DNA of 64,000 nucleotides from Moniliophthora roreri (taxonomy: Eukaryota > Basidiomycota > Agaricomycetes > Agaricales > Marasmiaceae). The stretch covers positions 1,736,001 to 1,800,000 of the forward strand of contig LATX02000211.1 in assembly GCA_001466705.2 (NCBI GenBank), read 5' to 3'. A program made the position numbers and the translations under genes. The notes below the pieces were generated by a model. It ran no database searches and had not been told where the DNA came from. It worked only from the letters and a program-made list of their open reading frames with translations. This document shows positions 621 to 59,784 of this stretch, in pieces (position 1 is the first letter of the stretch; the number at the start of each line of letters is the position of its first letter).

Positions 621-3600
621 ATGGCAACTCTACCGACACTTCAACACGAGGCCAAGCCTCCAGTGTACGACGAGAAGGATGCCAAGGGGCCAAGACACTC
701 AGACTCCTTCACTGACGAGAAGGTCCAGCAAACTGGTCCCTTGGATGAGGTCGAAGAAGTCTACGCGGATGGGCCACGTCTTATCGATCTTGGAGAGGAC
801 GGGAAAGAGAGGCCTATTGGTGCGTTGTGCAACTGCTTTTGTCGACCCCCAATCTCATTTCATTCCCTATAGTATCCGACGCCGACTATGCCACCCGTCT
901 GGTCTCCCTAGACGACGACCCTAATATGCCAATTTTCACTTTCAGATTATGGTTATTGGGTCTTGGCCTATCATGTTTCGGTGCTGTGCTGGGGCAGATC
1001 TTTGTAGGTCTTATCTCCTTGACGTCGTTGACATCCACTCATACCGGTTCTAGTATTTCCGTCCTCAAACGGTACGCTAAACCCTCCGCTCTAGCCCACT
1101 TGCTCTCCTGACACGTGGTACAGATCGACGTCAGTATTTTGTTCCTTCAGGTTAGTTTCAGTTTCTCTGAGAAAGTGGTTCCCATCCTGATAAGACCTGT
1201 AGATCATCTCGTGGATCCTTGGAAGGGTAAGCCTCGGCAAAATGTCTGTAAAACACACAGTCTGACACCACCTCTAGGCGCTCGAGGAAGTGCTACCAGG
1301 ACCAAATCCTTCCGCAAGGTTTAGAACATCCGACAACGCATTCTGGCGATTCTTGAATCCTGGCCCGTTCAGTAAGAACATCTCTTTAAATCCGAGCTTA
1401 ATTTAACGTCGTCTAATCTTCATGTACAGGCCTCAAAGAGCATGTCGGAATTACAATCATGTCTTCAACGGCGTCTGCGTCAGCAAAAGCTATCAGCATC
1501 TTTGCTGCTCAAGATTTGTACTATAACGTACGACCGAATGCTGGCGTTGGAATTTTCACGTAAGTTGGCGTTGACATGACACGTAGATTACGTCACTGAG
1601 ACATCGACAGTTTGATTTCAACACAGCTGATTGGTTATGGCATGGCTGGTGAGATTTCCTTAAAAGATCTCGAAATTCAATTGTGCCTGACCCCATATTC
1701 TATCTCAGGTATTTTGCGCAAGTGGCTTGTGTACCCAACCTTTGCAGTGTACCCACAAGTCATTCCCACTGTCCAGCTTTTCGACGCTCTGCACAGAGGT
1801 CATGAAGCGATAGGCCAGAAGAAGCGTCTCAAGTTCTTCTGGATAGTATTCATTGCTATATTCATTTGGGAATGGTTCCCCGTAAGTCATATTACCTCTT
1901 GGTTTTAATTCCAGGGCACTCATAACCTCAGTACAGGAATACATTGCACCGTAAGTACAACCAGAGCCGTAATTAGTGGGACTTCTCTCAATACCTTCCA
2001 GAACTCTTACCGGCATTAGCATCTTCTGTCTGGCGAACCAGAAGAATGCATGGTTCACCAGAATATTCGGTGGTGCCGCTGGTAACGAAGGTCTCGGTAC
2101 TTTTTCCATCTGCTTGGATTGGGCCTACGTCGGATCTGGCGGTGGCTCCCTGGGAGCACTGTTCACTCCTCTTTCGACTCAGCTGTCCCTGTACGCTGGA
2201 TGTGCGGTTTGCATGTGAGTATCATCATACAGCTTTCCATGCATCAGGGCTCACCTCCGTTTAGGATCGCTTTCTGCGCCACTTACGCCTCCAACACATG
2301 GAACGCTCAGAACTTCCCCTTCTTGACTCAATTACTCTTCTTCGAGAATGGTAATGTCGCCCACGCAAATGCCGCTCGCTCCCTATCTGACCGACCATTT
2401 GTTTCTTACCACAGGTACTGAGTACGACCAACTCGCCATCCTCAATGATAAGCTCGAGGTTGATTATGAGAAGCTGGAGAGAGTGGTACGTCTGTCCTGT
2501 TAGGTTCGTACTCGTATGGCAACTGACGGCAGATTACATGAAAGGGTCTTCCTTGGTACGCAGCCTCGCAGTTGCTCTTCAAGATTAGCCGTACGATGTA
2601 CATTGGCGGTGGGTATCACGGCTTCCTACCATGATCCATAAAGGACTGATCGTCCTCTTAGCCGCCATCACACACTTCATCATTTGGCATGGACCGACCA
2701 TGTGGGCTATCCTGAAGGATCGTACTGTATGGGTGTCATGATTACTCGTGATTTCGCTTAACGACTAAGATCTTGCCCCTGCAGGAATGCACTGATCCTC
2801 ACTACTTGAAGATGAAGGTAAGCACTTTTGGATCTGGCATACTCGTGAATAGTTTTGACCGTTTGATTTTAGGTTTACAAAGAAGTCAATCACTGGATCT
2901 ATATTGGTCTTTTTGTCGTCTGTGCTTGTATTGGTATTGGTACATCATATGCTGCGTCATCTGGCCTACCATGGTGGGCGTTGATTGTCGCTCTCATCTT
3001 TGCCTGGGTCTTCGTTCCTGTTATTGGCACTGTGAGTATTTTTTGCTTTTTTCCGGGATTGACAGACGCTGAATGATAGTATCATAGCTCAACGCTACCG
3101 TCGGATATGCACCTAGTGTTGAGATTATGATTCAGGTATGGTTTTCAAGCAGCCGCCTGTCCCCAGCTGGTTCCTGAGATGACCCTTACAGATGATCGGT
3201 GGTGCTGTTGTCCCAGGAAAGCCGGTCGCCAACATGTATTTCTCTGCCTATGGATACAACCCAGTCATACAGTCGTACAAGTTAATGCAGGATCTGAAGA
3301 TTGTGAGCAAACAGTATTGCTAACATCCGCCGCCGGTACTGAATGTCGTTCCCTATAGGGTCAATACACCAAGCTGCCACCCCGGGCCACCTTCGCGATG
3401 CAGATGATTGGTACTATCATTGTCAGTGCTTTTTTCTCAGGCTGATCCACGTTCGCCGCTGATGCCTTTCATTTTGCAGGGTATGTTATCTCGTTCTCAG
3501 GCGTCAGACCTTTGTTTATCATCGACCCATAGGCGGATTATTGAACTATGTTATCATGGCTGTTCGTAACCTCGTCAAGCGCATCATCTCATCTCGTTGA

Positions 3601-4535
3601 CTCTGATGTTCTCGTGCAGACTGTCGTTTCAAGCCACCGTGAAATTCTCCGAGCTGTTCAGGGATCAAACGTCTGGTCTGGTCAACAGGTTGGCTTTTCC
3701 ACTGCCTTTAGCCCCTAGTCGAGGTCTGAATCGCATTGCAGGTACAATCTTTCAACAGTGCAGCTGTTGCTTGGGGTGCATTAGGCAAGCCTTTGTACGC
3801 TACAGGAACACGATACGGCGTAGGTCGGTTTGAACTTTCATAAGATCATTTGCTGATTCACTCGTCGCAGTTTGTTCCCTACATGTTACTCGCCGGTCTC
3901 GGGTTCCCGCTTCCCTTTTGGTTACTTCACAAGATGTACCCCAAGTTTGGATTCAACCTAGTCTTCACCCCCATTCTCGTTGGTATGTCGTTCAACGATT
4001 TGAATATGATCACTTGAAGCTGATCGCTTCACCACGTAGCCGAACTGGGTTATCTCTCCGTCGGCATCAACTCCAGTATCTTCTCTACGTTCCTGTTGGC
4101 AGTATTCTCTCAATACTACCTGCGGAAGTGAGTGTCTATTCCCGTTCACAACCGATGAATACTAAAGACATTGCGACTAGGTACCGCGCTACCTGGTTCC
4201 GTAAATACAAGTGAGATCTGATTGTTAACTTCTCTTGGAGTGGACATGTTCTGACGATTCTTCTAGTTTCCTGATGAGTGCTGCTCTTGACGGCGGTACC
4301 TCTGTAAGTGTTCCTCCTGACAACGAACCTGGCGTCCATTGACCAAAGATTGAAATTATAGATCATGATTTTCATCTGGACGTTCGCTGTGGGAGGTGCA
4401 AGCGGCGTTGAACGACCATTCCCCCATTGGGCACTGGTAAGATTCATTCATGTTGGTTTGGTTGAGTTTTTGCTCACTATTGGGTTTCAGAACCCCAAAG
4501 GTAACCCAGATTACTGTCTGCGTCTGGAGGATTGA
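621..4535 (+). CDS. Oligopeptide transporter, OPT family
   Basis: Proton-coupled multi-pass plasma-membrane transporter of small peptides (role known from the OPT family). The chosen start opens MATLPTLQHEAKPP, an acidic hydrophilic N-terminus, followed by a membrane segment LWLLGLGLSCFGAVLGQIF. Spliced reading then gives family landmarks in order: LNPGPFSLKEHVGITIMSS, SAKAISIFAAQDLYYN, the PTLTGISIFCLANQKNAWF stretch, a GGAVVPGKPVANMYFSAYG loop, and LMQDLKIGQYTKLPPR, which is the hallmark KxGxYxKxPPR motif. The end matches the usual OPT C-terminus (GASGVERPFPHWA, then GNPDYC). Coding sequence is spread over many short exons separated by introns of about 50-60 nt with GT..AG ends. No frame break was noticed. 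The neighbour downstream is transcribed in the same direction about 1 kb away with no visible functional link. Exact exon borders were read by eye and a few may be off. Confidence 0.9.
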
Positions 4536-5562
4536 TTCATGAAAGTACTTGACACCCAACGTTTTGTATAATGATTTCCTTGCCATCGGGATATTGTGTA
4601 TTTTAGGGTAGTAATGAGATGCCAGCGTGAGCTGGTTTTGGATGAAAGATGGGATGGTTGCTCTGCGTGTGAAAATAATAGGCGCGTCTCTTGGATTCCT
4701 ACGGTCAACACGTGGACAACACTTCGACTGAAGCGAATTTTTCCAGAGAAGTCAAGTGGTCTATCGCACAGGACCCTGACATCACCCAATACACCGAAAT
4801 ACAGCGCTCGTAAGGCCGGTGATGGGTGGACTTGGGAATTGATTTGTTGCGCTCGGGAGCCCACGCGACCATAATATTCGGAGTTACTTGAGGTGTGGTG
4901 CGTGTACAGCAACACCAGCGCGAGCTAGGACTAACCAAGATGGATATCAGTACTGGCTTCCTTCTACAACAAGAGACTGGCAGTCACACCTCGGACGTAT
5001 ATTGGCAAACAGGATAAAGCAATCTCTCATGAAAAAAAGGTCTGCAAAGAGCAGACAGCGCCCCGACTTCGCAATGCGGGCTGTTCACCTTATCCTTATC
5101 AGTCGGATGACTATTGATGTCAATCTGGACCTGAAATCCCGCTCATCGTGCCAAGGCTGGGCTATCTAAAGGTTGCATATATTTATTAATGCTCTTATGA
5201 ATTGGTGAGGCTTTTCACTCAATGTGAGAGCGAAAGTCTCATTTCGTTTATCCAGCGGGTATCAGTGAAAAAGTCCGGTCATCGGACTAAGTGTGTATCC
5301 AGCTGCTCGCCATGTACAAAACTCCTTGCCATCGGAGGGCACTAGTGCTAGTTATTTTATTGATTGCCGTCCGCAGCAAGGGGATGGAGTGTTTTGAAAA
5401 ATTTCGGCATGATGGCTGGCACTGATGAACATATCTGTTCTGCATTACTTATAGCTCTCGTTCAAGTATTTTCGGTCTCTGGAATTTTCCTTTTCGTCCG
5501 CGGCTGTCCCGGCGCTACTACCTGTCCTCCCAAACCCGCATCCTTGTCTATACTTGGGCAGC
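4536..5562. other. Intergenic region between transporter and ASST-like gene
   Basis: About 1 kb with only short overlapping reading frames on both strands and no recognisable domain. An AT-rich patch lies near 5170-5190, but it is about 380 bp from the next start codon, so it was not called a promoter. Confidence 0.4.
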
Positions 5563-7663
5563 ATGATGCTACTTCGTTCATGGAAGCGTTCACTCGCATT
5601 ATCGCTGCTCTTCAATTCGTTCGTCAACGCAGACTCGGTCCTCTTTGAGAGTAACGAATACCTTTCCGGAACATTAGGAGCTGCACCATTCCAGAGTTAC
5701 TTCTCGAGCGACTATACTCCGTATGTCACCTGTGTCTTCCGTATAACACGCTTGCTCAGCACCCCTTCTAGTCCTGCATGGAATATCGTCGTTCCTCGGA
5801 ATCGCACTCGAAGAGTTACACCAGGATATCTGTTCGTGGCTCCTCGAGGTATGCTGTAACTCATTAAGGAACCCTTTCACAATTAAATCTCTTCATTAGG
5901 GACGGCAATAGCTCAGTTTGGTGCCGTCATTTATGCAGACGACGGTACTATGATATGGAACGGCAACGAATATGGTGAAGCAATGGCATTCCAAGTTGTG
6001 ACGTACATGGGGCAGCCTCACATATCGCTGTGGCAAGGAAACTGGACTGGAGAAGGTATAGGCAGTGGCTTCCATATCTTACTCAACCAGCATTACGAAG
6101 TGGTGGCCAACTAGTATGTTTCCCGTCAATGTATACTGCAAGCTAGGATGCTGACGCCGATCCTCGATAGTACAACCGACCTGGAGGGGGAACTGGGACA
6201 TACATATGCTGATTTTCATGAGGTGAGACAAACGTTTTATCTTCGTACTTTGATACCTTGATGGTGATCACTATTCAGACTGGCATCACTACCAACAACA
6301 CTGGACTATTAGCAGCATACGAGACCAAGTCAAGGGATCTTAGCCCTTATAACGGCCCGTCATCCGGTTGGATTAGAAACTCCGTTATACAAGAGCTCAA
6401 TATTACCAGTGGTTTGTACCCCTTTGCGTAAGATTATTCGGATATTCACTATCTCTACCCGGTTAGGCAAGGCTCTCTTCACTTGGAGTTTTCTTGATCA
6501 TGTCGACCCGGGAGACTGCTATTTCCCAGTGGCAAGCTACGGAACGGAAACCAGCAATGCGTGGGACTACTTCGTGGGTATACTGCGACGCATTCTTCAA
6601 CAAAGGGGTATTTATTCACACATTATAGCACGTCAACTCCATAGAGAAAGATGATTTTGGGAACTATCTCATTTCCTCGCGCCACTGTAGTACCCTCTAC
6701 TACCTCGATGGAACCAATGGCAATATCATTTGGAGGCTGGGGGGCCACGACTCCTCCTTCACAATGGGAACGGGAACGGAGTTCAGCTTTCAGCATGACG
6801 CCCGGTGGATATCATTAAATGATACTGCAGGCAGGCTCAGGTCAGTTTCCGGCGAGAACGGATCTATTCATAGCGCTGATGACTTTAAATATAGTTTGTT
6901 CGATAACGCAGGGATGTACGGTGTTTATAATGAAGAGAGTGCGAGAGGGCTAGTGATAGATCTCGATTTCTCAGCAATGGCGGCCAATCTCGTTCAGGAT
7001 TATATCCCATACATTCACGTTGTTTCTGAAAGTCAGGGCAGTGTGCAGCTGCAACCCAATGGAGACGTCTTGATTGGGTATGTAGATTCTTCCAAGAAAT
7101 GAGAGTATCCTCACGCTTCTTGTTCTCAGGTGGGGCTCGATGCCATGGTTAGCAGAATATTCGTCTACAGGAGATCTTGTTTGGTGTACGCAATTCGGAG
7201 CAACCACCGATGTATCAGGATGTAGGTACCGTCACACGGTCGTCCCGGTTCATGTATTGACAGCTCCTCAGACAGAACACTACGCTACAACTGGACCGGA
7301 TATCCTACCACAACACCTTCGATTCAACTTGTGGGTGGCGGAGCGTCTGCTCTGCTTAGCATCCACGCATCCTGGAACGGCGCAACAGAAATTAACAAGT
7401 GGGAACTTCTTGGCGCTTCGGACGAAAGTGGTTCGGGCGCCATGTCACTGTATAACCGGACTAGAACCGGATACGAAACCACGATAACAGTGTCCACAAA
7501 GAACAACGCCTACTCGCACTTTGCGATGAGGGCCATTGATAGGAATAACCAGCCATTAGGAAGGAGTAACTTTGTTTCCGGAGCTGCGACGTATTCGCTG
7601 CGTGCATCTGTTAGTGGCCTTGCTGTTCTACTCGTAATGGTATTGCAGTGGGAGGCTCGATAA
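5563..7663 (+). CDS. Secreted or membrane-anchored arylsulfotransferase-like (ASST-family) protein
   Basis: Spliced translation resembles the fungal ASST-like family (Arylsulfotransferase / Arylsulfotran_2 type, predicted beta-propeller). The first two ATGs (5563, 5566) precede a hydrophobic signal peptide ending near VNADS, then the FESNEYLSG start of the mature protein. Later landmarks are RVTPGYLFVAPRGTA, AVIYADDGTMIW, YADFHETGITTNNT, SGWIRNSVIQELNI, NYLISSRHCSTLYYLDG, IIWRLGG, FSFQHDARW and GDVLIGWGSMPW, all typical of the repeated propeller blades. The C-terminus ends in a hydrophobic tail (GLAVLLVMVLQW) after small residues, which suggests a GPI or membrane anchor. Introns are short; the first removes about 5723-5770. 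Many N-x-S/T sites fit an extracellular protein. Enzymatic activity is unproven for the fungal members. A broken paralogue lies at 32.3-34.1 kb. Confidence 0.8.
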
Positions 7664-10142: not shown

Positions 10143-12986
10143 CTACTCTGAAACCATCCTCACATTCTCAAATTCCTTCGTAAACTCCTCCATGGCATCC
10201 AAAGTCTCAGCAAAGTGCCTAAATACCAGTTTCTCACCCTTCCCTACGGCGAGTGACTGTGCAGTCCTCGCTGCATTTTTGATCTGCCTTCCGTTGATAT
10301 CGCGTTCAGCCAGCACCCTGATCTGTTCCGGTGTGATCTCGCCCAAAGCGCCAAGCTTTTTGATGAACGCCTCCCAGATCTGCACTTTGGATTCAACAGG
10401 TAGGTGGGTGAAGCGCAGAGCAACATGAATACGGGAAAGGAATGCCTCGTCGAATGCTTTGACCCGGTTTGTAGTCAGGAACAGGATACCGCGATAGTAC
10501 TCGACATGTCGGAGGCTAGAAAGAAATGCCCAGGTAGTAAGTGACGGGAAAGAAAGAAATCGAGATCGGGGTGCCCTATGAACACTCACAAAACAGCAAC
10601 CATGGCGTTCCGGTGTAAATCATGAAGTGAACGCTGTTCCAAGAAAACGTCGGCCTACGAACGAACAATTTAGAATTCGGGTATTCACATCTTTCATCAT
10701 GTGGGCATACCTCGTCGATGAGTACAATTGCCTTCCATGTCGTCGCTACTTCAAAGACACGTTCCAGCGTTGCGTCTAGCGTACCCGAGTCTGTACCAAG
10801 ATCGCCAGCTCCGACGAGATACAAAGGGCGTCTAACATGTTCGCTAGTAGCCTCCGCTGAAAACGTTTTGCCTGTAAAGCTTCGTTAATGACATGCATGT
10901 GCCCCATCATCAAGCAAAGGATACGTACCAACGCCAGGAGGCCCAAAGAAATTGACGACCAGACCGTGTCCTTTACCCTTGATGAAATCATCGAAACCGA
11001 GCTCTTTATGATGTGCTTCAACTAGAGATTGTAACAGGTGCTTTCGGTCGTCTGGTAGTACGAGATTTGCAAAGGCCTCATTGTTCCAATCGACATCTGA
11101 GATCTTGTCAACGTCAAATTCCACTGTTTGAGAAAATGGGGGCAGGGTGAGCACAAAGGATTACATATCAAAGGGTGGAACAAACGTACACCACAATTTG
11201 TCGGAAAGACTGAACCCGTACACAACGGTTGATGTTAAAAGTAATTCCTCTTCTGTCGGCTCGGGCTTATTTGCATTACTATCGGCCTTGTTCGAGCGAT
11301 TGTTTTGCACGAGCGATCCTACAGTAGTGCATTGGCGTGAGTACCCAGTGACGATTGAGAACGTCTGGACACATACCGTTCCCAAATTGATTGAGAGTCA
11401 TTGGTACAGGAAGTGGAAGGAAATTCCCACATTCATCCGCGGGAATAGTGGCAGGTATTGGGATAGCTGCAGCTATCTGCTGCATAGCAGAGACAGGAAA
11501 CCGATAGTTGGCGTTGAAGCGCTTGAAGCTGGCTGCAAAAAGAACATGTCCATCAGTTACGGCTGAACAAAACCAGATATGTGGCCGGTATAATTACCTC
11601 GATCGATCATAATTCTTCCCTTCACGGTATGCTTCAAGAACCCAGAATTATCCTTCTTGAACGCAGCAATCCCGTCAAACTCTTTATGGTGTACTCCGAT
11701 TAGCTCTACCCACTTTTGTCCTCTCCTCATGACGCTCTCCTTCAACCTTTCCGGCTCGACATGGAACTTTACAGGATAGACATCTAGTTCCTCGATTGGA
11801 ACAGTTCCCCGGAATTGCTTGACAAGGATTGTCGCCACCACTCGACCTACACCGGTAGTCCCTGTTGCTTGGTTGTCCACCAAATTGACCGACTCGCAAT
11901 TGAGCTGGTAGCAAGAAGTATTCTCCACTACGACTCGTGTCCAAGATGCTAATTTAAACATACGAAGGGATCCAGTGATGGCACAGCGGGCGACAAGAAG
12001 AGTACGAGGGACTAAAAGGGCGTATAGGTGGTCAAACGTGGTCTCTCGGTGGGTTTTGTGCTGGTTGATAATACGAATGGTGGCCTGGTAATCGGTATGG
12101 AGGAACGAAAGTAGGAGCTCGACGGAGGAGAGGATGTAGGTTTGCGCGGATGTCTTCTTGGCTGTGGTTTTGAGTTTGTCTCGGTATTCAGTGAATTCAT
12201 CGAGGAAAGTCAAGAATAACTCAGGGTCGAGCTGATGAAAAGGTGCTAAATAAGTGCATGATAGACATGAGCGCTCAGAGTCCATACCTCGAGGGGATCG
12301 GAATTCCATGAGATACCCGGCCATGATCCAATAACATCTTTGCATGCTTTCAAAACATATTCGCTCTTGATGATCATCTTGAATGTGGGTTCCTTTCCCT
12401 CGACCTGGGACAGTCTTCGTACGAAACTGGTACATAGAGATAGTCAAGGTAAGTATGCCAGAAATGTTTGGTAACCCACATGAAGCTAAAGTCTTTCCAT
12501 GGATCGTTTGCACCTCGGCTGGGGACAGGAATGGACTCTGCAGTTACATTTGAGCTGGTGATCTGAATGCGAGAGAAATAGGCATCAGCATTCCACCGCA
12601 AGAGAGGGAACACATACCCGATACCTCCAGTCCTTATACCACTTGCTGTAGTAATGATCGACCCTCTTGATCTTCAAGGAAGGCGGTGCCAGCACTTCAC
12701 TTTGAGCGGCAATTGCGTCCGATTCCTGGTCTTCTTGATTGACATTGCCGTCCGTAGGATACGAAGACCCATGCCACAATGTTCCTTCCATGGTCGTAGC
12801 GGATCTACTCTTAGAGGATACGAGGGACGAAAAGCGGCGATGCATTATGATGATAGGGCAAACTGGGAAGGATGGTAGCGTCTCTCTGACAGAGGATTTA
12901 TAGGCTGTAGAAGATTGTTTAGTAATGGAACCGTACAATCCATTGAACGTCGCTTCTAGAAAGACGTCAGGTTTGGCACCAGACAT
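10143..12986 (-). CDS. AAA+ ATPase, fungal DUF7025-type
   Basis: Predicted ATP-driven remodelling protein. The N-terminal half has the pattern of fungal DUF7025 proteins (LDPELFLTFLDEFTEYRDKL, DHLYALLVPRTLLV, then GVVATILVKQF-like and IEELDVYPVKFH segments). The C-terminal half is one AAA module. Walker A reads GPPGVGKT, interrupted by an intron after the second G of GVG. Walker B reads IVLIDEADVFLEQR, also split by an intron after IDE. Sensor 1 and the arginine-finger region follow (GILFLTTNRVKAFDEAFLSRIH). The protein ends NVRMVSE at 10143. The start at 12986 opens MSGAKPDVFLEA, but an internal start is possible because the first about 70 residues are not conserved-looking. It converges on the F-box gene with about 100 bp between stop codons. 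The substrate is unknown. Many family members sit beside heterokaryon or self-recognition loci, but nothing here shows that. Confidence 0.82.
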
Positions 12987-14982: not shown

Positions 14983-15940
14983 CTAATCATCATAAAAAAC
15001 CAGAGCTCTAAGCTCGATAGACTCCCTGAACGGACTGCCTTCGGGAGTCGCAAGATCCTCGAACGCGGTGTGAGGTGTAAGCACCGCAACGCTTCCGTCC
15101 TCGATAGAGTCATAGCTACAATTACATCAGCCCAGATGCCTCACGAGATAGAAACAAGCAACATTACCACTTGATCAGGATAACCTCCTCCGGTGTCATA
15201 CCCCTCAGATACTTCCACTTGTGGTTAGGGTTATGCTTGACACCAAATGTCTCTCCCACTCTATCAGGATACACCAAATCCACCGGTACCAGATCCTCCT
15301 TTGGATTAACCGAACGGTAATCACAGACCGCAAGCGGCCAGTCTAACGCAGGATGCGAGATGGGACGCCAGAGGTTGATGATTTGGAAGCGGTGCTTCAA
15401 GCGCTCTGCGGCTTCGTCTTCAGGGAGATGTCGGCGTACACGGTTGTGGGCCGCTTGGGAGGTCTGATCGACGTGTACACGGGGTACGGGTGCGCGTTTC
15501 TTCGGGTCCATGCCGTCTTCTCCTTCACGGCGGCGGCGAATGGCTAGACCGTACGAGGTGCGATTAGCGTCATCGTAGCCGGGAATGAGGGGAGTATATC
15601 ACGTACTGTGATCGAACAGCACAACCTTCGTTGCACCTGTGAGTTTCTTGATCAACTCAATACTTTCTGGGTAATACTCCTTCTCGATCTCGGCATCATC
15701 GTTGAACGCCTTATGGTCCGAGGCGTGTTTTGCGAACAGGAAACCAGCATTGTCAAGGTTGACTGTATCTTCCTTTCCACGGACGTTCTCGATTTGAACA
15801 GCATGTTTGATAGTTTCGTAGTTGATCGCGGGTACACCTTCAGGAGGCGGATAAATGTAGGTACGAGGCTTGCTGCCGTCGGTCGGAGGGGAAAAGTAGA
15901 AGAGTGACGCAGTTGCTGTATCGTTGTGAATGGCTGGCAT
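14983..15940 (-). CDS. AsaB/CmcJ-like hydroxylase or desaturase family protein (copy A)
   Basis: Three exons (15607-15940, 15168-15543, 14983-15115) join cleanly through introns of 63 and 52 nt into 280 residues. The product matches the fungal AsaB/CmcJ-like family, described as GA4 desaturase or hydroxylase-desaturase proteins, which occur in secondary-metabolite loci. Landmarks are ASLFYFSPPTDGSKPRTYIY near the N-terminus, HDHK-like KHASDHKAFNDDAEI, VVLFDHTIRRR across the first splice, PRVHVDQT (the likely metal or cosubstrate HxDxT region), INLWRPISHPALDWPLAVCD, and the C-terminal FRESIELRALVFYDD signature. All are present, so the gene looks functional. A TATA-like TATAAAT lies about 70 bp upstream. 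It forms a pair with copy B (19500-20459), which has identical exon lengths. The substrate is unknown. Confidence 0.85.
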
Positions 15941-16010
15941 GGTGTGAGATGCAGGAGCCGTTTGGTGTGAAAAGGAATGCTTGATGAACGAGAAGGACTG
16001 GCCTGAGCGT

Positions 16011-16017
16011 ATTTATA
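16011..16017 (-). promoter_or_regulatory. TATA-like box upstream of AsaB-like copy A
   Basis: TATAAAT on the minus strand, 71-77 bp before the start codon at 15940, within the region that is also duplicated upstream of copy B. Position and sequence suit a core promoter; there is no direct proof. Confidence 0.4.
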
Positions 16018-17654
16018 AGACTATGATGTCGTCATAAGTGCCTAGAATGATGAGATCGTTCTGGGAGTTGCTCACCAAGACAGGTCTTTGTAAGATTAGT
16101 TCGGGTAGGACCTGTCGATGGTAAGCACTAGTAAGCTTTGATCTCTCTAGAGCTCGTAAAGGTAAGTATTTCAGCATTTGCCGATAGCTGTTGGACGAGC
16201 GCGACATTTGTCAGCATCCGAGTCAATTGCTGTACCAGCAAGGTAGCGAGTTATCAATATCAGTATCATTCTGTAAAGTATCATGGGGCAAGACTTACAG
16301 GTACCGAGTCATTCGAGTCATTTTAGGTAACGTTTTCTGGGCGCCAGTACGCGCGGGGACCGGAAGTCCACCTGAAAAGGTGAGGAAACGTATGTGCTAT
16401 TGGCCGACACTGCTTGTTCATCCTCTTCTTGCACGATTCAAGAAGTCTTCCTGGGGTGTAGCACTCTACCAGCTGCTCTAGATTTCGGGATAGATTCCTG
16501 TAGGAAGACGCTGCATCGAGATCACCAAGATGACGAGGTGTGGATTACCATGATATCTTCGCGGGCCTCGTCTTCTCCAGAACACGTATTGGTGAAAAAG
16601 CACCCTTGACTAACACGATGTACCGACATAGCACTCCTGGATCGGGGTGAAGAGGGCATCACCGAATTGTAGGGTGTACGGGTTTTCTAGCAGCCTGAGG
16701 AAGGTTATCGTTCATGGTTGTACACTGACAGAATATCCGGAATACACATACCATGAAAAGCAGCCGAACCATCTATTTTTTCTTTCACTTCCCTGCTCCC
16801 TACAATTCCGGTCGATTCGCGTAACCTATACAACGGGCCGAGCAAAAAATTTAGCCTAAGAGGAATTGCTTGAACGGTTTGCCTGCCGACATCGGGACTA
16901 TCAACGCAATGATGAAAGACCTCGGTAATTGGGGACGTGCGGAGTATGAACTCGATGAAGTAGCATTGGAAGACAACCCGTGTCACCCCGAGCTCCAATC
17001 AATTGTAGCTAGGGAGATGGTATCTTGTTCAGTGAGACACTTTTTTCCCCAACGTCGACAAGCATTCCGGGACCGAGGATGTCGAGAGCTTCCACGCCGA
17101 TAGAAGCGACGTCTTAAACAGCCGGGCCAAAACCGAATAAAGAAGGGTATCTTGAGGCGAGATTGGTGCCAGAGCGATAGCCTGTGAGGAGCCTTAGAGA
17201 AGGTGGGCCGGTCAACGAAAATAAAACAAAAGGTAGAAATCCAGGGATTTCACTCACCTCAATGACCGCTACCTCCTTTGCCCTCTCTCACAATTTCTCT
17301 GACAGGTTCTACTTCAGGTAATTCAATTTCCCAGTAACTTCATCATTTCACAAAGCAAACCCCTCACGAGTCATGGCGGTTCATCAGACCTTGAAAATGG
17401 ATATGAGCTTCAGACAAAATATTCACCTGCTGAAGGGCTCACCTGGCGGATTAAACCATTATTGTATCACTTTTCTACGTTTCTCGAGGGAGGCTGAAAT
17501 CAGAAATGGGAGATGAGACCAGCGGACGGTGGTGGTCAGGAAGAAAGGACTGAAGCCGCGCCGGAAAAGACCTTGACGCCTCACACACAGACCGACATCG
17601 TTCTTATAGCTTCCCCTCAAGGAACCTCATTCATTTTATCTCTAATTCGAATAT
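16018..17654. other. Intergenic region between AsaB-like copy A and the UstYa-like relic
   Basis: The first few hundred bases are recognisably related to the sequence upstream of copy B (20500-20590). The remainder contains only short overlapping frames without motifs. An earlier gene may have decayed here, but none can be named. Confidence 0.35.
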
Positions 17655-18620
17655 TTACTCGTCATCGGTAGGAGGTTCTATATTCAACTCGAAATCACCA
17701 AAATGAAGCCAGTTTTCTGGTCGTCTCGCCCATTCGCTTGTCTTGTTGAAATTCCTACATATATGAGGAATATCAAGGATACCCACGTTCTCATTTCATC
17801 CTGGGACTCATGTCCATACAATAGTGCTAACATCTAGTTCCAAAGTATCTGGACATCGCATACCAACATCAGGAAATCACCATCTTGCTCCCCACTTTCC
17901 ACAACTTTTCTAGCTTTTCACTAGATTGAATTGATGTCTTCTGTGCATTAGGACACTGGTAGAACAATTTTCAGTGGCTCGCTTTTAGGGGTCTGGAACC
18001 CTCCTTCCCACTTTCCACTTTGCCGAGCTTTTTCATCAAAAATCACAAGTTGTGGGAGTCCACACAGTAGCCACCAAAAATTAATGTGATATAGTTTTAT
18101 TGTATGACCAAATGATTATATTGAAAAGATTAGAATGGCCAGAATTGAGTGTGGAAGTGGACGAAAGTGAGTGGAAAGTGCCGTGGGGAAATCCTGATGA
18201 AGGAACAGGTAGGGGCCGTTTCATACCTGATGCACAATTGGTAAATGACATCCTGTCGGAGATGCTCTTATTCTTCATTCTCTATTTGCGAATATCCCAA
18301 GCATGTGCGTGAAGCTCCTGGTAATAGTCCCGATAAAGTGTTTTTCAAATCGTGTTCTACGAATGGGTCGGTCAGCAGAGATGTCGGCGGCTTCCAGACC
18401 CACTTACCACGCAATGCAATTGATGAAACGCGTGTAGCTCGATGATATAATGACTTTGATCACTTGGGATGCGGATAGTCTTGAGAGATATATAGCTGGT
18501 CCGCGTTTCGACTCTGGCTGCCGATGCCGAGTCCATCGGACGCGACGATGAAGATCCCCATACTGGTTTACCAGCTTGACGGAGCAGCATTGAGCGATAA
18601 CCCGTGTCGGCTGAGCTCTG
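17655..18620 (-). pseudogene. UstYa-like (DUF3328) oxidase pseudogene
   Basis: UstYa-type proteins are fungal oxidases with HxxHC motifs that act in peptide and other secondary-metabolite pathways. Here one exon ends in YIIELHAFHQLHCV (HQLHC at about 18411-18425), followed by a good GTAAGT splice donor at the usual place. The next exon reads NTI-stop-KTLYRDYYQEL, where the family has an IRK segment, so the stop TGA stands where CGA (Arg) is expected. Further down, EHLRQDVIYQLC resembles the LRQ-IMC motif, but with another stop just before it. The C-terminal exon (about 17655-17850) reads HICRNFNKTSEWARRPENW, the usual CRxWxxxxxWA end. An AT-rich stretch between about 17890 and 18200 may be inserted. 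Several lesions together argue for a dead gene. The true 5' limit is uncertain and could reach about 18900. Confidence 0.6.
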
Positions 18621-19499
18621 AGCGAAAGATTCCTAATGTCAGATAGACCTCGAGGCTGGCGTTGCTCAAGGTGTATGGATCGTGTTTCTTCTACAGTGTT
18701 CCGGGACTTGAAAAGTCATGAGCTGTCGAGCCAGTTGATGCAGCCAGTCTTGCAGAGGGGTGCCATAAACGAACAGAAAGTCATAACTTGAGATGATATA
18801 TCGATGCCAAAACGATAACCTCCAGGTGAAAGGCCATATAAATTTGGGCACTTGACTCACCCAGACGACGGCTCATAAACTTCTCTCAAAAAGTTCTACG
18901 ACTGATCCAGGTTTTGTGTAGGTTCCTCGCTTCAAAATGCGTGTCGTTCACCTGGCGATGAATCCCCAAAAAGACTGAAAACGAGTGAGCTTCAGAGGAA
19001 CTTTCGGTGAATAAAGGACTCATCTGAGGTATCGAAACTCTTATTGCATCATTTTACCCACACTGTAAGCTGCCCAAGGGAGGTTGAAGCACGGACTGGG
19101 GATAGGGTGAGTGAGCAGATGGGAGTCGGGGAGAGAGGCCTGGAGCGCCCGACCGCCCGGAGCGTCGATTTCTCTCAGGCAAACCATCATATTCGATGTC
19201 ATTCTTTTCCTCTTATACCAAGTAAATTGATTTAGTCGATTTATCGGCCTGACGTCCGAGTCGGCTCACCTATTTGCTAACTGATTTTGTCGACAGGGCA
19301 CAACGCCGTGGCCATCATGACTCGCGGCTCGGATTTGTATCAATTACATCGTATGACGAAGAACGTAAGCAGCACAAGATTGATTCAACAGTGTATTCAT
19401 TGGATTTTGATTATGTTCCTAATTTCGATAACATGAATTGGCATGGGTCCAAACCACAGTAGCGAGTACGAATTAATTCACAAAGAAAAGCGGAAGAGC
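18621..19499. repeat. Diverged duplicated segment (5' side of UstYa-like relic)
   Basis: Roughly 18480-19230 matches 24690-25250 by eye. Shared features in the same order include an ATCGGACGC stretch, CCTAATGTCAGA/CCGAATGTCAGA, a CATATAA segment, a TTCACCTRGCGA stretch, GAATAAAGGA, and a GAGCAGATGGGAG block followed by a GCGCC-rich patch and ACCATCAT. The segment therefore covers the 5' part and promoter of an ancestral UstYa-like gene. The last about 270 bp up to the AsaB-like copy B stop codon hold nothing recognised. Confidence 0.5.
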
Positions 19500-20459
19500 C
19501 TAATCGTCATAGAAGACCAGAGCCCTGAGCTCAATGGACTCTCTGAAAGGGCTTCCCTTGGGAGTACTCGGATCCTCAAAAGCGGTGTGAGGCGTAAGTA
19601 CCGCAACGCTTCCGTCCTCGATAGAGTCATAGCTATAAGTTACATCAGCCCAGATGCCTCACGAGATAGAAACAACCAACATACCACTTGATCAGGATAA
19701 CCTCCTCTGGCGTAATCCCTCGCAAATACTTCCACTTGTGGTCAGGATTGTACCTGACACCATATATCTCTCCCACTTTATCAGGATACACCAAATCCAT
19801 CGGTACCAAATCCTCCTTTGGATTAACCGAACGGTAATCGCATACTGCAAGCGGCCAGTCTAACGCAGGATGGGAGATGGGACGCCATAGGTTGATGATT
19901 TGGAAGCGGTGCTTCAAGCGCTCGGCGGCTTCATCTTCAGGGAGATGTCGGCGTACGCGGTTGTGGGCCCCAAGGGGTGTCTGGTCGACGTGTACACGGG
20001 GTACAGGTCCACGTTTCTTTGGGTCCGTGCTGTCTTCTCCTTCACGGCGGCGGCGAACGGCTAACGATGCGAGGTGGGATCAGTATCGTTGTAGCTAAGA
20101 ATGAGGGCGGGAATATATCACGTACTGTGATCGAACAGCACGACCTTCGTTGCGCCTGTGAGCTTCTTGATCACTTCGATACTCTCTGGATAATACTCCT
20201 TCTCGATCTCGGCATCGTCATTGAATTCCTTATGGTTCGAGGCGTGTTTGGCGAATAGGAACCCGGCATTGTCAAGAGTCAGTGTATCTTCTTTTCCACG
20301 GACGTTCTCGATCTGAACAACATGTTCAACAGCCCCGTAGTTGACTCGGGGTACACCATCGGGGGGCGGGTAATTGTAGGTACGGGGCTTGCTGCCGTCA
20401 GTTGGAGGGACGAAATAGAACAGAGAGGCAGGAACTGTATCGTTGTGAATAGCTGGCAT
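19500..20459 (-). CDS. AsaB/CmcJ-like hydroxylase or desaturase family protein (copy B)
   Basis: Close paralogue of copy A with the same architecture: exons 20126-20459, 19685-20060 and 19500-19632 (334, 376 and 133 nt), introns of 65 and 52 nt, 280 residues. The hallmark segments are kept: ASLFYFVPPTDGSKPRTYNY, KHASNHKEFNDDAEI, VVLFDHTVRRR, PRVHVDQT, INLWRPISHPALDWPLAVCD and the FRESIELRALVFYDD end. Differences from copy A are mostly conservative (for example PEGVPAINYETIKH versus PDGVPRVNYGAVEH), so both copies seem to be under constraint. An upstream methionine in the open frame exists at 20519, but the shared MPAIHND start at 20459 is preferred because copy A begins there. A TATATTTAAA-like element lies about 46-56 bp upstream on the minus strand. 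Confidence 0.85.
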
Positions 20460-20504
20460 GATGCGAGGTGTAGAGCTTGCTTGCCCTGGCTGCTCTGAGT
20501 CTGG

Positions 20505-20515
20505 TTTAAATATAA
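20505..20515 (-). promoter_or_regulatory. TATA-like element upstream of AsaB-like copy B
   Basis: An AT-rich TATATTTAAA stretch on the minus strand, roughly 50 bp before the start codon, in the same relative position as the TATAAAT of copy A. Weakly supported. Confidence 0.3.
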
Positions 20516-21685
20516 GCAAGACATGATATCGCCATAAGCGCTTGAATGATGCAATTATTGTGGGAGTAACTCACCAGTCCTTTGTAATCCGGTCATCGGT
20601 GAAGGCTCTAATTTGATAGAATTCTTGAATTGAAGGTATTATTCATCTCTCCCTCGAGTTTGTAATTAACTTCTGAGTGTTTGCCGACTGCCTCGGCGAA
20701 CCCATAAGTCAACAGCGAAAATGAGTATGTTATATAACTAAAGCCAAAAAGAATCAAATGTCAGCGATATTACTTTAGAGTGAGAAGAGTCGGACGAGAA
20801 TCACTAACTACGTCAATCGCTTGACGTTTTTCTTCGAATTCATGACTGCCATCCTTGTCGCTCGTCCATAGGACAACTGCCATCCATGATCCTCAGAGAA
20901 GATACGAATCCGCCTCAGAATGGAGTTCCTCAGGTCTTCCTGCCGGTGAAGCCTTTGAACGGTCCGTGCATGATAACATCAGCTTGGGCTGAGCGAGAAA
21001 AAGCGTTGCATTGCGTGTCGTTCAGGTTTCGAAAACCCTTCAGACGTTCCGGTGTGGGTAGCATTGACCAGGGGAAGCTCAGGGACCTATAGGCTACTCT
21101 GTAGTCCGAAGAATGTGCAAGGTGTGAGGTGCCCATACGAAGAAGGTATACGTGTTTGACGAATTTTTCCAGGTCAGACTTGCGGGATACCCATCTTGAT
21201 ACCACGACGTTCCTCTAATCACAACAAGAACTCGAATTGCGAGGACGGATACATCTCCGAAAGGGTATGCGACAAGGTGGAGTATTCTTCAAGGAGAAAC
21301 TTTGTAAACTGACAAGATGTAGTCAATAAACCAAATGTATGGCGAATCAATTTTTTGCTCACCTTAACGGGCAGTCCCATCTACAACCTCTCTGCCCTAG
21401 TTAGACAGACCCATTTCACCACGAGCCTTGCCTCCTGCAGCAGCCAAAGCTATAATGAGATGGAGTTTTAGTTCACAGCCAGCATGTCTGACGCCGACTG
21501 GCAGATCAAGACCTGAGAAAGAGATTCTGAAGTTGGATTTGGCTGGTCAAGCAGCCAGGGTGGATGGCAGCCGGCAGCCGGCTTTGAATTTGAAAAGGGC
21601 GCCGTCACGCCGGAAAAATCACACGTGTGCAGGTCTCGACCTCTCCCACGAGCCGCCACGATTTCTACTCGATGGCGAAAACCTT
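20516..21685. other. Intergenic region between AsaB-like copy B and UstYa-like fragment
   Basis: The left part is homologous to the upstream region of copy A. The stretch 21430-21660 resembles 17400-17640 in composition and order of short blocks (for example CGCCGGAAAA). No intact gene was recognised. Confidence 0.35.
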
Positions 21686-21870
21686 TTAGTTTGATTTATC
21701 GTCATCAAGAGGCTTTACATGCAAGTCAAGGTCACGCCAATAAAACCGATTTTCTGGCTGGTTCGCCCACTCGCTGATCCTATGAGGAACACCTAACGGC
21801 CTGTAGTCATGTTTTCTCCGTTCCAATGCCATACAATAGTGCTGACGCCCGTAACAGGTAATAGTAGCGT
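21686..21870 (-). pseudogene. C-terminal fragment of a UstYa-like gene
   Basis: The last frame reads VPHRISEWANQPENRFYW and ends DLHVKPLDDDKSN. It aligns with the C-terminal exon of the UstYa-like relic at 17655-17850 (TSEWARRPENWLHF, ending LNIEPPTDDE), and the DNA on both sides is also alike (the CACTATTGTATGG block). The HQLHC exon expected upstream is absent; the intervening 2.8 kb instead holds a membrane-protein gene. It is best read as the 3' piece of a split gene whose 5' piece is at 24690-24900. Confidence 0.5.
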
Positions 21871-22194
21871 CGTCTACCTGTGCGGACCAATTCAAGCCAG
21901 GACATTTGGAAGTGACGTTACTCCGAAAGACGAATTGGTAGTCGATGAGGGACACATATCACTTGTGTTGGTTTACGCGGCTCGAGAATGGATCGGGTTA
22001 AAAGTTGATGTCAAAATCGTTCCCTACTCCATAACTCCATAAAAGCTGAATTTTTCTACACAGTACATATTGGATATCATAATGTGGCTGTGAAACTAGT
22101 CATTCCCGGCTCTCGCCGCCACACTGCCGATACTGACTTATGCATTCATCGAGTCTTGGTACGTATCACTCACTGGAAAGGTTAACTATAAATA

Positions 22195-24141
22195 CTACAA
22201 GCGGTGCTCAACCTCAGAATCTAATCCACGGCTGGCAGCATGGAACGTTTCAACCGTGTGATCCTTTGTTTCATTGTACGCGCTCATTGTTTTCCCCAGT
22301 CCCAGACGCACCGTGATCACTGTCGGCGCGATTCCCTACCAAGTCCTAAGTATAGTTCATCAAGGATTCCCAAGTTGGACTGACGTACAGCAAATTGATT
22401 CACGTTATACTGCATTACTTTCATGAAGAGATGCATCCCATTGTACGACGTGGACTCCATGGAAGATCTGATTGCAGCCGTGATATCCGGGAGTAGATCA
22501 TGCATCAAGATACCGGATCCGTAGAGGAGGAGCGCGATAGGGTACAGCATTCCGGATTCCAGGCTATTCAATATATTGTGATGGGTTAGCGGTTAGCTGG
22601 GGTTCGTTGGGAATTTGAAGACATACGTTATGGGAATGACTGTTCTATAGAGCCTGTTGGGGTTGGAATCATGTGGCAGGGAGAGTGTGGCTTGTCGACT
22701 TTGATAGAAAAGTCGACCGGCTGGGCATCAAGCTTAATACTCGAGGTTGACTTTAGGAAAGGGAAGTGTGACTTACCTATCATACCAGTCAATAAAACAT
22801 TGGTGATGACAGTGATCACGACGAAGATTAAGAATAAATTGGAGTTTCTCTCGCCGAAAGGAAAGTCCCATATGGCAGAAATGGAAAGGTTGGAAAGGTA
22901 TTGTATGAGGTTGACGATAGCTATGACTGAAAACAGGATGAGTCTTGCAAATTATGCTAGTTAAAAGCTTACTATTGTTTGCAAGACAGAGAATAACCGG
23001 CAAAATTATCACTCTGATGCGTCCGCCCCAGACAATATAGCATCGCCAAACCTAGGAACGTGTTCCACTCGTTTCTGAGCCGAAGAATCTACTGCTCACC
23101 ATGACAATGTCTGTGATCATGCTAACAGTGCGTCGGAATAGTGGAAATTGGGATGGCATTCATGAGGCCCTGTGTTTGTATAACGAAGGGTCAGGCTTAC
23201 TGACTTTCCTAGGAACAGCAGTGCTAATCTTGCGATAGAAAGTTTTCGTAAGCTGAAAATCAAATCAGAAAAAGTAGTTCAAAAGTCGTACAGTATCGCA
23301 CTCACTCGTATGAGGATGTCACAGTGAGTCCTACAGATCCAAATCCGGAGATGACAACATCAACAGTATTTATAGCGACGCTTGCAGTGGCCAGGATGAA
23401 GAGAGCCGTGACAGAAAGGCAGTGAAAGCGATACCACGGCCGTTTGATTTTGGCCTTGGTCAGAACTAGGATGCATACACCGAAGAGAATGGTGTAGACA
23501 CCATACAGTAGAAATACAATCTGTGAGGTAGGGACATTTAAAACACTTCTCACTGGAGTGACCTTTGAATTATCGTACCGCGATAACAATAATTGGAGTT
23601 TGGATCGTCCAACGAGTGATAAAGGGAGCGCACTGTAGGAAGAAAAGGTAATTTAGTACTGAGTGAATATGAGAAAATGTACACTTACGCAGACGGAAAT
23701 AACATTTTCTCCGCAACTCTCCGTCGCAGTATCTCTGCTGCAAAGATACCTGGAAAAGAGATTCTATGAGAAGGAAAAACAGAGTTCAAGTACAACCCAC
23801 CGAACGCCGGTCTGCATATTAGTGTACCCGCTAAAAATGATGGGTTCAGGACTGCATGCAAATATCCCGTGTTGCGAACTGCAGGCGTTCTCGTTGGTAG
23901 TCAAGCCATCAACGACGCGACAGGTATTGTCGTAGACATTCCCTAAAACTCCCAGTGAGCCTGAAATCTGATGAATCCAGTAAAAGGGTGAGCACTTACA
24001 ATGACTGAAGCCTCCACCTATATCAATGACATTCCCAATCCCGAATTGGAAACCATAGCAAATGCTTTGAGCTAGAGCTAATCTAGCTCCGACGAGAAGG
24101 AATAAGATGATACGGATGATCTCGCGAGTACGCGCTGGCAT
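22195..24141 (-). CDS. Seven-helix membrane protein with N-terminal secreted Cys-rich domain
   Basis: Exons read by eye join into one long frame. It starts at 24141 with a signal peptide (IILFLLVGARLALAQS) and a Cys-rich ectodomain of about 100 residues (GNVYDNTCRVVDGL, ACSSQHGIFACSPEP, RYLCSRDTATESCGENVISVC). The chain then runs into membrane helices: IIVIAIVFLLYGVYTILFGV, LSVTALFILATASVAI, LARLALLFLG, then MVWRCYIVWGGR, VIILPVILCLANN, a LIFVVITVITNVLLTGMIAG helix, and LYPIALLLYGSG. The YRCYxxWG-like loop and AGRLFY are typical of a large basidiomycete family of integral membrane proteins of unknown function. The C-terminus (GIAPTVITVRLGLGKTMS, ending EVEHRL) is also typical. About ten introns of 39-95 nt are needed. 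The fusion of the two halves could instead be two genes; no internal start was seen for the second half. Confidence 0.65.
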
Positions 24142-24176
24142 TGTGGTTTCGAGAGCCAAGACGTCAATGTTCAACG

Positions 24177-24186
24177 TATATATATA
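24177..24186 (-). promoter_or_regulatory. TATA box of the membrane protein gene
   Basis: TATATATATA lies 36-45 bp upstream of the proposed start codon at 24141. It supports the Cys-rich methionine as the true start and so the one-gene model. Confidence 0.45.
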
Positions 24187-24689
24187 CAGCAATAAACGAT
24201 CACAATGCCGAACTGAGCGTTGATTGCATCTGGGTCTGAGCATCTTCGAACTATTTTCGAGTGATATAGTGCTCCAGTGGAGTAAACTTAAGGTTTGATG
24301 TGGCTAAATCCTAAGATTTCACCACCCAGCCGACGACGTACGATAAGCATTGTCGTCATTCCGAATCCAGCTCCAGCGTCAAGGTTCGAGCTTGAATACC
24401 GTCGCCCTATAGGAGAAACTTTCGGTATGAGATTCGAAGTTCTGACTTTTAGACCACCAATGAAGGATGAAACTCTAGAATTGGACTGCAAGAAGACGGT
24501 AAGTTGTCTAATGAGCTCGATGATTTTGTGCCACATAGAAACTCGAACGGACCCGAACAGAATATCGTTAGTAATGATACCTTGATAGCGAAGCCAGGTG
24601 ACACAAGAAGCGACCGGGCCATTGATTCTTCCACCTTCCAGCTTCTTTCAGCCATCATGCCCTACGGTAACCTGACCGTTTGGACACTT

Positions 24690-25250
24690 ATGGACTGTCG
24701 ATACCGTACCCATCGGACGCAACGAAGATCCTCTGTCACTCACTGAGATTGCGGTTGAGAGAGAATACCGGTTTGGCGATGTGCAGTATTAGCCTGACAA
24801 AGCAATGTTCAGCGACAACCTGTGTCAGCGGTGCTCCGAGATTTCCGAATGTCAGAATGGACCTTGCGAAGTCGGTATTGCCTAAGGACCATATAAGTTA
24901 GGCTTCGGCGAGCGCTACTCCCATCACCCCTAAGTCTTGCGCAGAAGTTCTCCGACTGCTCCAAATTTTGCATAAGTTTCTTGCTCCAAAACACGTTTTG
25001 TTCACCTAGCGACGACTTTTTATGCCAAGAATTTGAAAATGATTATAAGCCCTAGAGGAAATTTTAACGAATAAAGGATAGAAACTCTCGTTTCGTCATT
25101 TTTTTACGTGTTCGCCGGCTCGAGGCACAGAATGGAGATAAGGCAAGTGAGCAGATGGGAGATGGGAGTCGGGAAAAAAGGATGAAGCGCCGGACGGGCG
25201 CGGCTTCTCTCACGAACCATCATGACCAATTTCGTTCTTCGTCTTATTCT
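24690..25250 (-). pseudogene. 5' fragment of a UstYa-like gene with its promoter region
   Basis: The DNA resembles 18480-19230. On the minus strand a reading frame gives RIFVASDGYGIDSP, matching GIFIVASDGLGIGSQS in the other relic, but it is broken by stops and lacks the HQLHC exon. The upstream part keeps the GAATAAAGGA and GAGCAGATGGGAG blocks. Together with 21686-21870 it would make one ancestral gene in the correct order and orientation. Confidence 0.4.
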
Positions 25251-51306: not shown

Positions 51307-51307
51307 N

Positions 51308-57802: not shown

Positions 57803-57803
57803 N

Positions 57804-59700: not shown

Positions 59701-59780
59701 ATCTCCAGGGGGTTATAACCCAGGTCCCCAGTGGTTATAACTGGTTCCAGCAGTTATAACCCACCAAAACCAGTTATAAC
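59691..59780. repeat. Five GTTATAAC palindromes at the centre of the large inverted repeat
   Basis: The octamer GTTATAAC, itself a perfect palindrome, occurs at 59691, 59712, 59734, 59753 and 59773, spaced 19-22 bp apart. Flanks are often extended to GGTTATAACC-like. The regular two-helical-turn spacing would place the sites on one face of the DNA. Confidence 0.8.
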
Positions 59781-59784
59781 TGAG

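What the first reader, a model, noticed from the sequence alone, without database searches (positions are those of the whole stretch)
14983..25250. Tandemly duplicated AsaB-like + UstYa-like oxidase module
On the minus strand the order reads AsaB-like A, UstYa-like relic, AsaB-like B, then UstYa-like fragments. Both AsaB-like genes are 280 codons with identical exon lengths, and similarity extends into their upstream regions and into the UstYa flanks. Each family is known from fungal secondary-metabolite loci (UstYa as an oxidase in peptide cyclisation, AsaB-like as hydroxylase or desaturase). A two-oxidase module of this composition in a basidiomycete is not one I recognise. Whether it had a core peptide or other core gene is unknown.
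Basis: partly seen in the sequence, partly recalled or inferred. Interest (0 to 1): 0.75.

Follow-up and report, generated by a model that had tools for sequence, protein, structure and literature searches.

The report
Decayed fungal peptide-oxidase gene pair
In what is very probably a cacao-pathogen fungus, the window holds a decayed, duplicated piece of a peptide-making gene cluster whose intact-looking version, nearby on the same contig, appears to include a hidden peptide precursor gene cut into tiny exons.

Summary
Two 280-codon minus-strand AsaB-like genes with identical exon lengths (334/376/133) are open and 88% identical, pairwise dN/dS about 0.11; they belong to the CmcJ/NvfI Fe(II)/2-oxoglutarate oxidoreductases. 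Each is preceded by a UstYa remnant. Transcription order is UstYa-B, AsaB-B, UstYa-A, AsaB-A. The genome is very probably Moniliophthora roreri.

The window is a decayed copy. On the same contig, 66 kb away, a UstYa-UstYa-AsaB locus that looks intact aligns to the window (77% over 2,664 columns). Repeat precursors lie beside UstYa genes at 5 of 10 UstYa places outside the window, each divergent from and 5' of UstYa. None was found in the window.

Best reading: remnant of a dikaritin-type RiPP cluster with an added CmcJ/NvfI-type dioxygenase. No transcript, product or enzyme activity is shown here.

The parts
14983..15940 (-). AsaB-like gene A (CmcJ/NvfI family), exons 15940-15607, 15543-15168, 15115-14983, 280 aa, open throughout
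   Evidence: splice, length; family by its 88% identical paralogue B (P0002), NF041278 306.6 bits
19500..20459 (-). AsaB-like gene B, exons 20459-20126, 20060-19685, 19632-19500, 280 aa, open throughout; identical to public M. roreri protein P0002
17658..18491 (-). UstYa A remnant: HQLHC exon (itself open), a stop in the exon after it, two stops in the last exon (17658-17834); exon with the second HxxHC not found
17867..18199 (.). 333-bp dispersed repeat with imperfect inverted ends inside UstYa A; 44 further match rows in the genome
18504..19216 (-). 5' flank of UstYa A shared with the 5' flank of UstYa B
20800..21690 (-). UstYa-AsaB spacer; its 5 other matches in the genome all lie beside AsaB genes or remnants (C110, C83 three times, C76)
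21695..21864 (-). UstYa B remnant: last exon only, with a frame break and a missing stretch that held the conserved Cys after GVPH
22317..24143 (-). ORFs of an apparent multi-exon gene with hydrophobic stretches (read by eye) lying between the two parts of UstYa B; no other DNA match in the genome; no Pfam hit over cut-off; intactness not tested
24677..25247 (-). 5' flank of UstYa B
621..4538 (+). OPT oligopeptide transporter gene (exon pieces), paralogue of one beside the other C110 locus (C110:1671.9-1675.0 kb)

Best explanation
The window holds a tandemly duplicated, decayed part of a dikaritin-type RiPP gene cluster. In the intact-looking version a secreted precursor with core repeats ending in Lys-Arg or Arg-Arg enters the secretory path, Kex2 frees the repeats, membrane-bound UstYa oxidases modify the aromatic (here mainly Trp) core, and an AsaB-like Fe(II)/2-oxoglutarate dioxygenase may hydroxylate or desaturate the product. 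In the window no precursor is found and both UstYa genes are broken (stops, a dispersed repeat, missing exons, an intervening gene), while the two dioxygenases stay open and conserved, presumably acting in trans on the product of the nearby cluster or on a new substrate. Shown: gene identities, decay, duplication, conservation of AsaB, and coding-type precursor arrays divergent from UstYa. Inferred: Kex2 cleavage, core modification, AsaB's substrate.
For: P0002 (= AsaB B) is a CmcJ/NvfI member at 306.6 bits (cut-off 80); the HxD pair (135/137) and distal His (252), present in A and B, align with two solved dioxygenases. dN 0.062, dS 0.55 between A and B. UstYa1, UstYa2 and AsaB stand in order on the plus strand at C110:1679.3-1684.8 kb, and UstYa2's last exon through AsaB aligns with window 21897-19380 at 77% over 2,664 columns. 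C110 precursor: leader exon plus 6 repeat exons, all multiples of 3, six GT-AG introns of 51-64 nt; among 4 repeats 52 synonymous against 13 non-synonymous codon differences in frame, 2/56 and 4/51 in the other frames, and 16 of 20 variable sites at codon position 3. Repeat arrays before KR/RR at 5 of 10 UstYa places outside the window, all divergent from UstYa. No ketosynthase or condensation-domain match on C110 or C83. Three AsaB genes and a UstYa gene of P. palmivorus on contigs of one recorded length (749,645), with locus numbers 006755-006770.
Against: No transcript, peptide or product evidence. Cores here are mostly Trp-bearing, whereas known UstYa substrates are chiefly Tyr (and recalled). 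The first C110 repeat ends in IRE, without a dibasic site. AsaB genes also occur without UstYa (C76, C1), and 8 of 10 UstYa places show no AsaB in the fetched DNA, so AsaB's part in the pathway is the weakest link. The three AsaB copies at C83 are truncated (no exon 1, a stop in exon 2 of each). The three M. roreri UstYa-AsaB places share DNA and are not independent. No array was found at 5 of 10 UstYa places, and one precursor-like gene (C83:553.2 kb) lies 36 kb from the nearest UstYa match. On C131 two ketosynthase matches lie 9 and 16 kb from UstYa genes, so some UstYa genes of this genome may serve polyketide clusters.
Confidence: 0.72

Rival explanations
1. AsaB-like genes are general dioxygenases that merely hitch-hike with UstYa in one duplicated DNA segment; the pairing has no biochemical meaning.
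For: AsaB genes without UstYa at C76 and C1; spacer DNA is shared among the M. roreri AsaB places, pointing to a few duplications of one segment; the family is large, 5268 proteins at E <= 0.001.
Against: The pairing also appears in Paramarasmius palmivorus (VNI00_006755, 006767, 006768, 006770, same recorded contig length); pairwise dN/dS of the window AsaB genes is about 0.11.
Confidence: 0.3
2. The repeat arrays are ordinary secreted Kex2 repeat proteins (hyphal-wall or signalling peptides) next to UstYa by chance, and UstYa acts on something else.
For: Most basidiomycete Kex2-repeat proteins lack a DUF3328 neighbour (103 of 1680 have one within 15 genes; passages of PMC7329392). One precursor-like gene at C83:553.2 kb is 36 kb from the nearest UstYa match.
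Against: The 5 array places found by one rule in 264.7 kb all lie within about 3.2 kb of UstYa, divergent and 5' of it, and none lies in the 64-kb window or at the C76 and C1 AsaB loci; a leader paralogue with one truncated repeat lies in the same divergent position before UstYa2. Caution: the loci were chosen because they hold UstYa or AsaB, and about a third of the sample or more is UstYa-near by design.
Confidence: 0.12
3. The window belonged to a cluster with another kind of core enzyme (NRPS, PKS or terpene synthase), now lost or outside the window.
For: UstYa proteins also act in non-ribosomal pathways (cyclochlorotine; recalled); on C131 ketosynthase matches lie 9 and 16 kb from UstYa genes.
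Against: Genome-wide there are 3 condensation-domain matches, on C56, C23 and C100, and no ketosynthase match on C110 or C83. Terpene synthases and P450s were not searched.
Confidence: 0.06

Closest known systems
Dikaritin / ustiloxin-type RiPP clusters (UstA precursor + UstYa)
   Same: Secreted precursor with repeated cores closed by dibasic sites, next to UstYa (PF11807) genes.
   Different: Basidiomycete; in the C110 and C83 precursors each repeat has its own phase-0 micro-exon(s); cores are mostly Trp- rather than Tyr-bearing; a CmcJ/NvfI dioxygenase gene is attached at C110 (remnants at C83 and, without working UstYa, in the window).
Kex2-processed repeat proteins (KEPs) of Umemura 2020 and Le Marquer 2019
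   Same: Signal peptide, repeats, KR/RR sites; C72b is a conventional repeat array within one exon.
   Different: Umemura mined annotated proteins and Le Marquer protein catalogues; the words intron and exon occur 0 times in the main text of both. The C110 precursor matched none of the 7992 candidates scored in the protein collection.
CmcJ/NvfI family oxidoreductases (NvfI; AsaB of aspergillic acid, recalled)
   Same: Family model NF041278 and metal-ligand positions met.
   Different: Known members that I recall act on meroterpenoids, cephems or pyrazines; a UstYa peptide cluster would be a new setting.

Membership tests
CmcJ/NvfI oxidoreductase (AsaB-like) | Score over the NF041278 cut-off | tested here: met
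   306.6 and 296.2 bits against 80 for P0002 (= AsaB B) and P0006; AsaB A itself was not scanned there but is 88% identical to B
CmcJ/NvfI oxidoreductase (AsaB-like) | HxD...H iron ligands | tested here: met
   His135, Asp137, His252 in A and B; B aligned with 7eus and 7emz; that these are the ligands is recalled
CmcJ/NvfI oxidoreductase (AsaB-like) | Fe(II)/2-oxoglutarate-dependent activity | not testable with these tools
   needs an assay
UstYa (PF11807), window remnants | Intact domain with two HxxHC motifs | tested here: not met
   A: first motif only, stops in later exons; B: last exon only
UstYa (PF11807), C110 and C83 genes | Domain over cut-off with two HxxHC motifs | tested here: met
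   167.8, 169.6 and 171.7 bits against 25; both motifs invariant in 7 of 7 aligned proteins
Dikaritin RiPP cluster (C110 locus) | Precursor with signal peptide and dibasic-bounded repeated cores | tested here: met
   the signal peptide was judged by a simple rule, not SignalP; splicing is predicted, not observed
Dikaritin RiPP cluster (C110 locus) | Core cyclised by UstYa | not testable with these tools
   no product data
Dikaritin RiPP cluster (window) | Precursor gene present | tested here: not met
   no repeat array before KR/RR and no credible match in the window

The most novel reading that the evidence does not exclude
Moniliophthora and allied mushrooms make a hidden class of UstYa-tailored, Trp-centred cyclic peptides from precursors whose core repeats each sit on their own micro-exons, which would hide them from annotation-based mining, and a CmcJ/NvfI dioxygenase further oxidises some of them; the window shows such a cluster dying with its dioxygenases kept.
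Probability: 0.4. Interest if true: 0.8.

Novelty: new variant of a known kind. Interest (0 to 1): 0.62.

Why it matters
UstYa genes are common in mushrooms (16 in Pleurotus ostreatus, passage of PMC8893723), yet few basidiomycete repeat precursors are known beside them (103 of 1680, passages of PMC7329392). If cores lie on separate micro-exons, gene predictors can miss them, and part of that gap would be an annotation artefact that public RNA-seq can test at once. Exon-per-repeat structure would also let core number change by exon duplication or skipping. The window adds a case of a cluster decaying while its dioxygenases stay conserved.

Tried and rejected
Precursor in the window: tblastn of 8 leader and core pieces gave only short chance-level hits (best E 0.026 at 53.1 kb; those within 18-25 kb were 4-13 residues long with E 0.22 or worse). 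Local alignments of 3 window stretches with 3 precursor regions in both orientations (18 comparisons) gave none above the best of 100 shuffles. Scans for tandem repeats of period 40 or more and for repeats before KR/RR gave none in the window.

Spacer between UstYa and AsaB as a gene: intron-like boundaries are conserved, but start codons and frames are not (read by eye); left as unexplained conserved non-coding sequence or a lost exon.

First candidate precursor, a 43-aa two-exon ORF before UstYa2: at DNA level related to the C110 precursor region (score 60, best of 100 shuffles 46) but with one truncated repeat; taken as a reduced copy.

NRPS or PKS core: none on C110 or C83, though ketosynthase matches lie near UstYa genes on C131. 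Codon-usage gene finding in the window was too insensitive. Two other tandem arrays found by TRF (period 59 at C110 about 1705.6 kb, period 102 at C76) showed no repeats before KR/RR. A tree of 28 AsaB proteins does not join the two window copies to each other or to another clade with support. Gene conversion between AsaB A and B is suspected (A-B genes more alike than their flanks, B-C110 flanks better conserved) but not tested. The splice between leader and repeats was not resolved for C72b and C148, nor the 3' ends of the C110 and C83 precursors.
Full report
WHERE IT IS. The window is G000:C110:1736001-1800000 of a 59.4-Mb genome in 154 contigs. AsaB B is identical to Moniliophthora roreri protein P0002, and the lengths of C110 (2,138,362) and C83 (794,281) equal the contig lengths recorded for M. 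roreri proteins P0006 and P0122, so the genome is very probably M. roreri, the frosty-pod fungus of cacao.

THE OBSERVATION. The two AsaB genes are as described: same exon lengths, 280 codons, 245 of 280 residues identical, pairwise dN/dS about 0.11. The UstYa calls hold as remnants. UstYa A keeps the HQLHC exon, which is itself open, with a stop in the exon after it and two in the last exon; the exon with the second HxxHC is not found. A 333-bp repeat with imperfect inverted ends (17867-18199) lies between its parts and has 44 other match rows in the genome. UstYa B keeps only its last exon (21695-21864), with a frame break and without the conserved Cys after GVPH; its shared 5' flank (24677-25247) lies on the far side of another gene at about 22.3-24.1 kb, which I read by eye as a membrane protein. 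Upstream similarity of the AsaB genes is only about 64 bp.

WHAT AsaB IS. P0002 (= AsaB B) and the C110 paralogue P0006 score 306.6 and 296.2 bits against the CmcJ/NvfI family model (cut-off 80). phmmer finds three solved sequences at E of about 1e-35 to 1e-36, NvfI, an NvfI mutant and a 2-oxoglutarate dioxygenase; in the two alignments shown, HxD and the distal His line up. Activity is inferred.

THE INTACT-LOOKING COPY. PF11807 gives 23 exon-level matches in the genome, which I group into 15 UstYa genes at 10 places plus the window remnant; I did not test all 15 for intactness. AsaB relatives lie at five places: window, C110:1683.9-1684.8 kb, C83, C76 and C1. On C110, 66 kb before AsaB A, stand two UstYa genes (public models 167.8 and 171.7 bits) and an AsaB gene, all on the plus strand. 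This stretch aligns with window 21897-19380 at 77% over 2,664 columns. The spacer DNA of window copy B has 5 other matches in the genome, all beside AsaB genes or remnants. C83 has one UstYa gene (169.6 bits) and three truncated AsaB copies. The pairing also appears in Paramarasmius palmivorus: three AsaB genes and a UstYa gene whose contigs have one recorded length, 749,645. An OPT oligopeptide transporter gene lies 10 kb from AsaB A in the window, and a paralogue beside the C110 locus; OPT genes are numerous (54 exon-level matches), so this is suggestive only.

THE CORE GENE. A rule-based scan for short ORFs with signal peptides in 264 kb gave 12 hits, several beside UstYa genes. Reading on from them showed repeat precursors. 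C110 (minus, about 0.6 kb upstream of UstYa1 and divergent): leader MRFSNLVPVLTLVVACAAAPTVDSIAAKRE, then six exons with one repeat each, four of the form xDVDAADRITQWADDFKIWIKRx (one with L for I), one longer variant and a short first one that ends in IRE without a dibasic site. Every exon is a multiple of three, with GT-AG introns of 51-64 nt. Between the four alike repeats the frame shows 52 synonymous and 13 non-synonymous codon differences, against 2/56 and 4/51 in the other frames; variable sites by codon position are 3, 1, 16. C83 (divergent from UstYa): leader MNLKTTVILAAITLVFGSPVDVSDLPPH, then three pairs of micro-exons of 18 and 33 nt, such as DGKLIE + TDEFIWGRRAE, with a paralogue of the same design 34 kb away, which is 36 kb from the nearest UstYa match. 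C23: two repeats ending in AWKR. C148: two repeats with DRFDWRAADWKRE. C72b: an array of DVSLDGAAYVYTDNERR type in one exon. The five beside UstYa are all divergent from it and 5' to it (UstYa places). A systematic search for repeated sequence before KR or RR in 264.7 kb, the whole window included, found arrays at these five places and otherwise only one short pair half a kilobase past the C110 precursor and antisense or out-of-frame echoes of the arrays; it missed the diverged C83 paralogue. Caution: the sample was chosen around UstYa and AsaB genes. No array was found at the other five UstYa places; on C131 two ketosynthase matches lie 9 and 16 kb from UstYa genes.

PRINT AND DATABASES. The C110 precursor matched none of the 7992 candidates scored in the protein collection. 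Umemura 2020 (PMC7329392; passages) mined annotated proteins and found 103 of 1680 basidiomycete repeat proteins near DUF3328 genes; Le Marquer 2019 (PMC6339444; passages) used protein catalogues. Neither main text contains the words intron or exon. The M. roreri genome paper PMC10468315 used antiSMASH and its main text does not contain UstYa (passages). In the capped listings of searches on UstYa with AsaB/CmcJ, dioxygenase, Moniliophthora, precursor peptide or exon, on dikaritin with Basidiomycota, on M. roreri with RiPP, and on P. palmivorus clusters, I saw no title or abstract start reporting this combination; the library lacks most subscription papers.

MECHANISM. Shown: gene content, decay, duplication, conservation of AsaB, coding-type precursor arrays. 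Inferred: splicing of the micro-exons, Kex2 cleavage at KR/RR, oxidation of Trp-bearing cores by UstYa, further oxidation by AsaB. For the window itself, the AsaB pair survives without its partners; action in trans with the C110 cluster or a new substrate are both open.

VERDICT. A real, decayed member of a known kind of cluster (dikaritin-like RiPP), in a variant with two unusual features: a CmcJ/NvfI dioxygenase and exon-per-repeat precursors.

Noticed in passing
window 57804-61684, 56321-59512, 49889-52725: Large inverted and direct repeats of 92-99.6% identity in an AT-rich stretch; probably transposons.
   Followed up: no
window 20800-21690 and C110/C83/C76 equivalents: Conserved UstYa-AsaB spacer with intron-like GT...AG boundaries but no conserved frame.
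   Followed up: partly
L036 5480-6520, L037 6220-7230, L033 7590-8780: A related multi-exon gene with hydrophobic stretches beside UstYa genes at C131 (twice) and C72; a gene of that look also splits the window's UstYa B.
   Followed up: partly
L037 5278 (+), L035 6259 (+): Short secreted ORFs with a QRR or VRR site beside UstYa genes; possible single-core precursors.
   Followed up: no
G000 C131 173-174 kb and 203 kb: Ketosynthase matches 16 and 9 kb from UstYa genes: possibly a polyketide cluster with UstYa.
   Followed up: no
window 11560-12543 (-) and 46481-48235 (+): DUF7025 domain protein (58.7 bits) and F-box-like protein (26.5 bits).
   Followed up: no
window 14983-15940 and 19500-20459: AsaB A and B are more alike than their flanks, while B's flanks match the C110 locus better: possible gene conversion.
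   Followed up: partly
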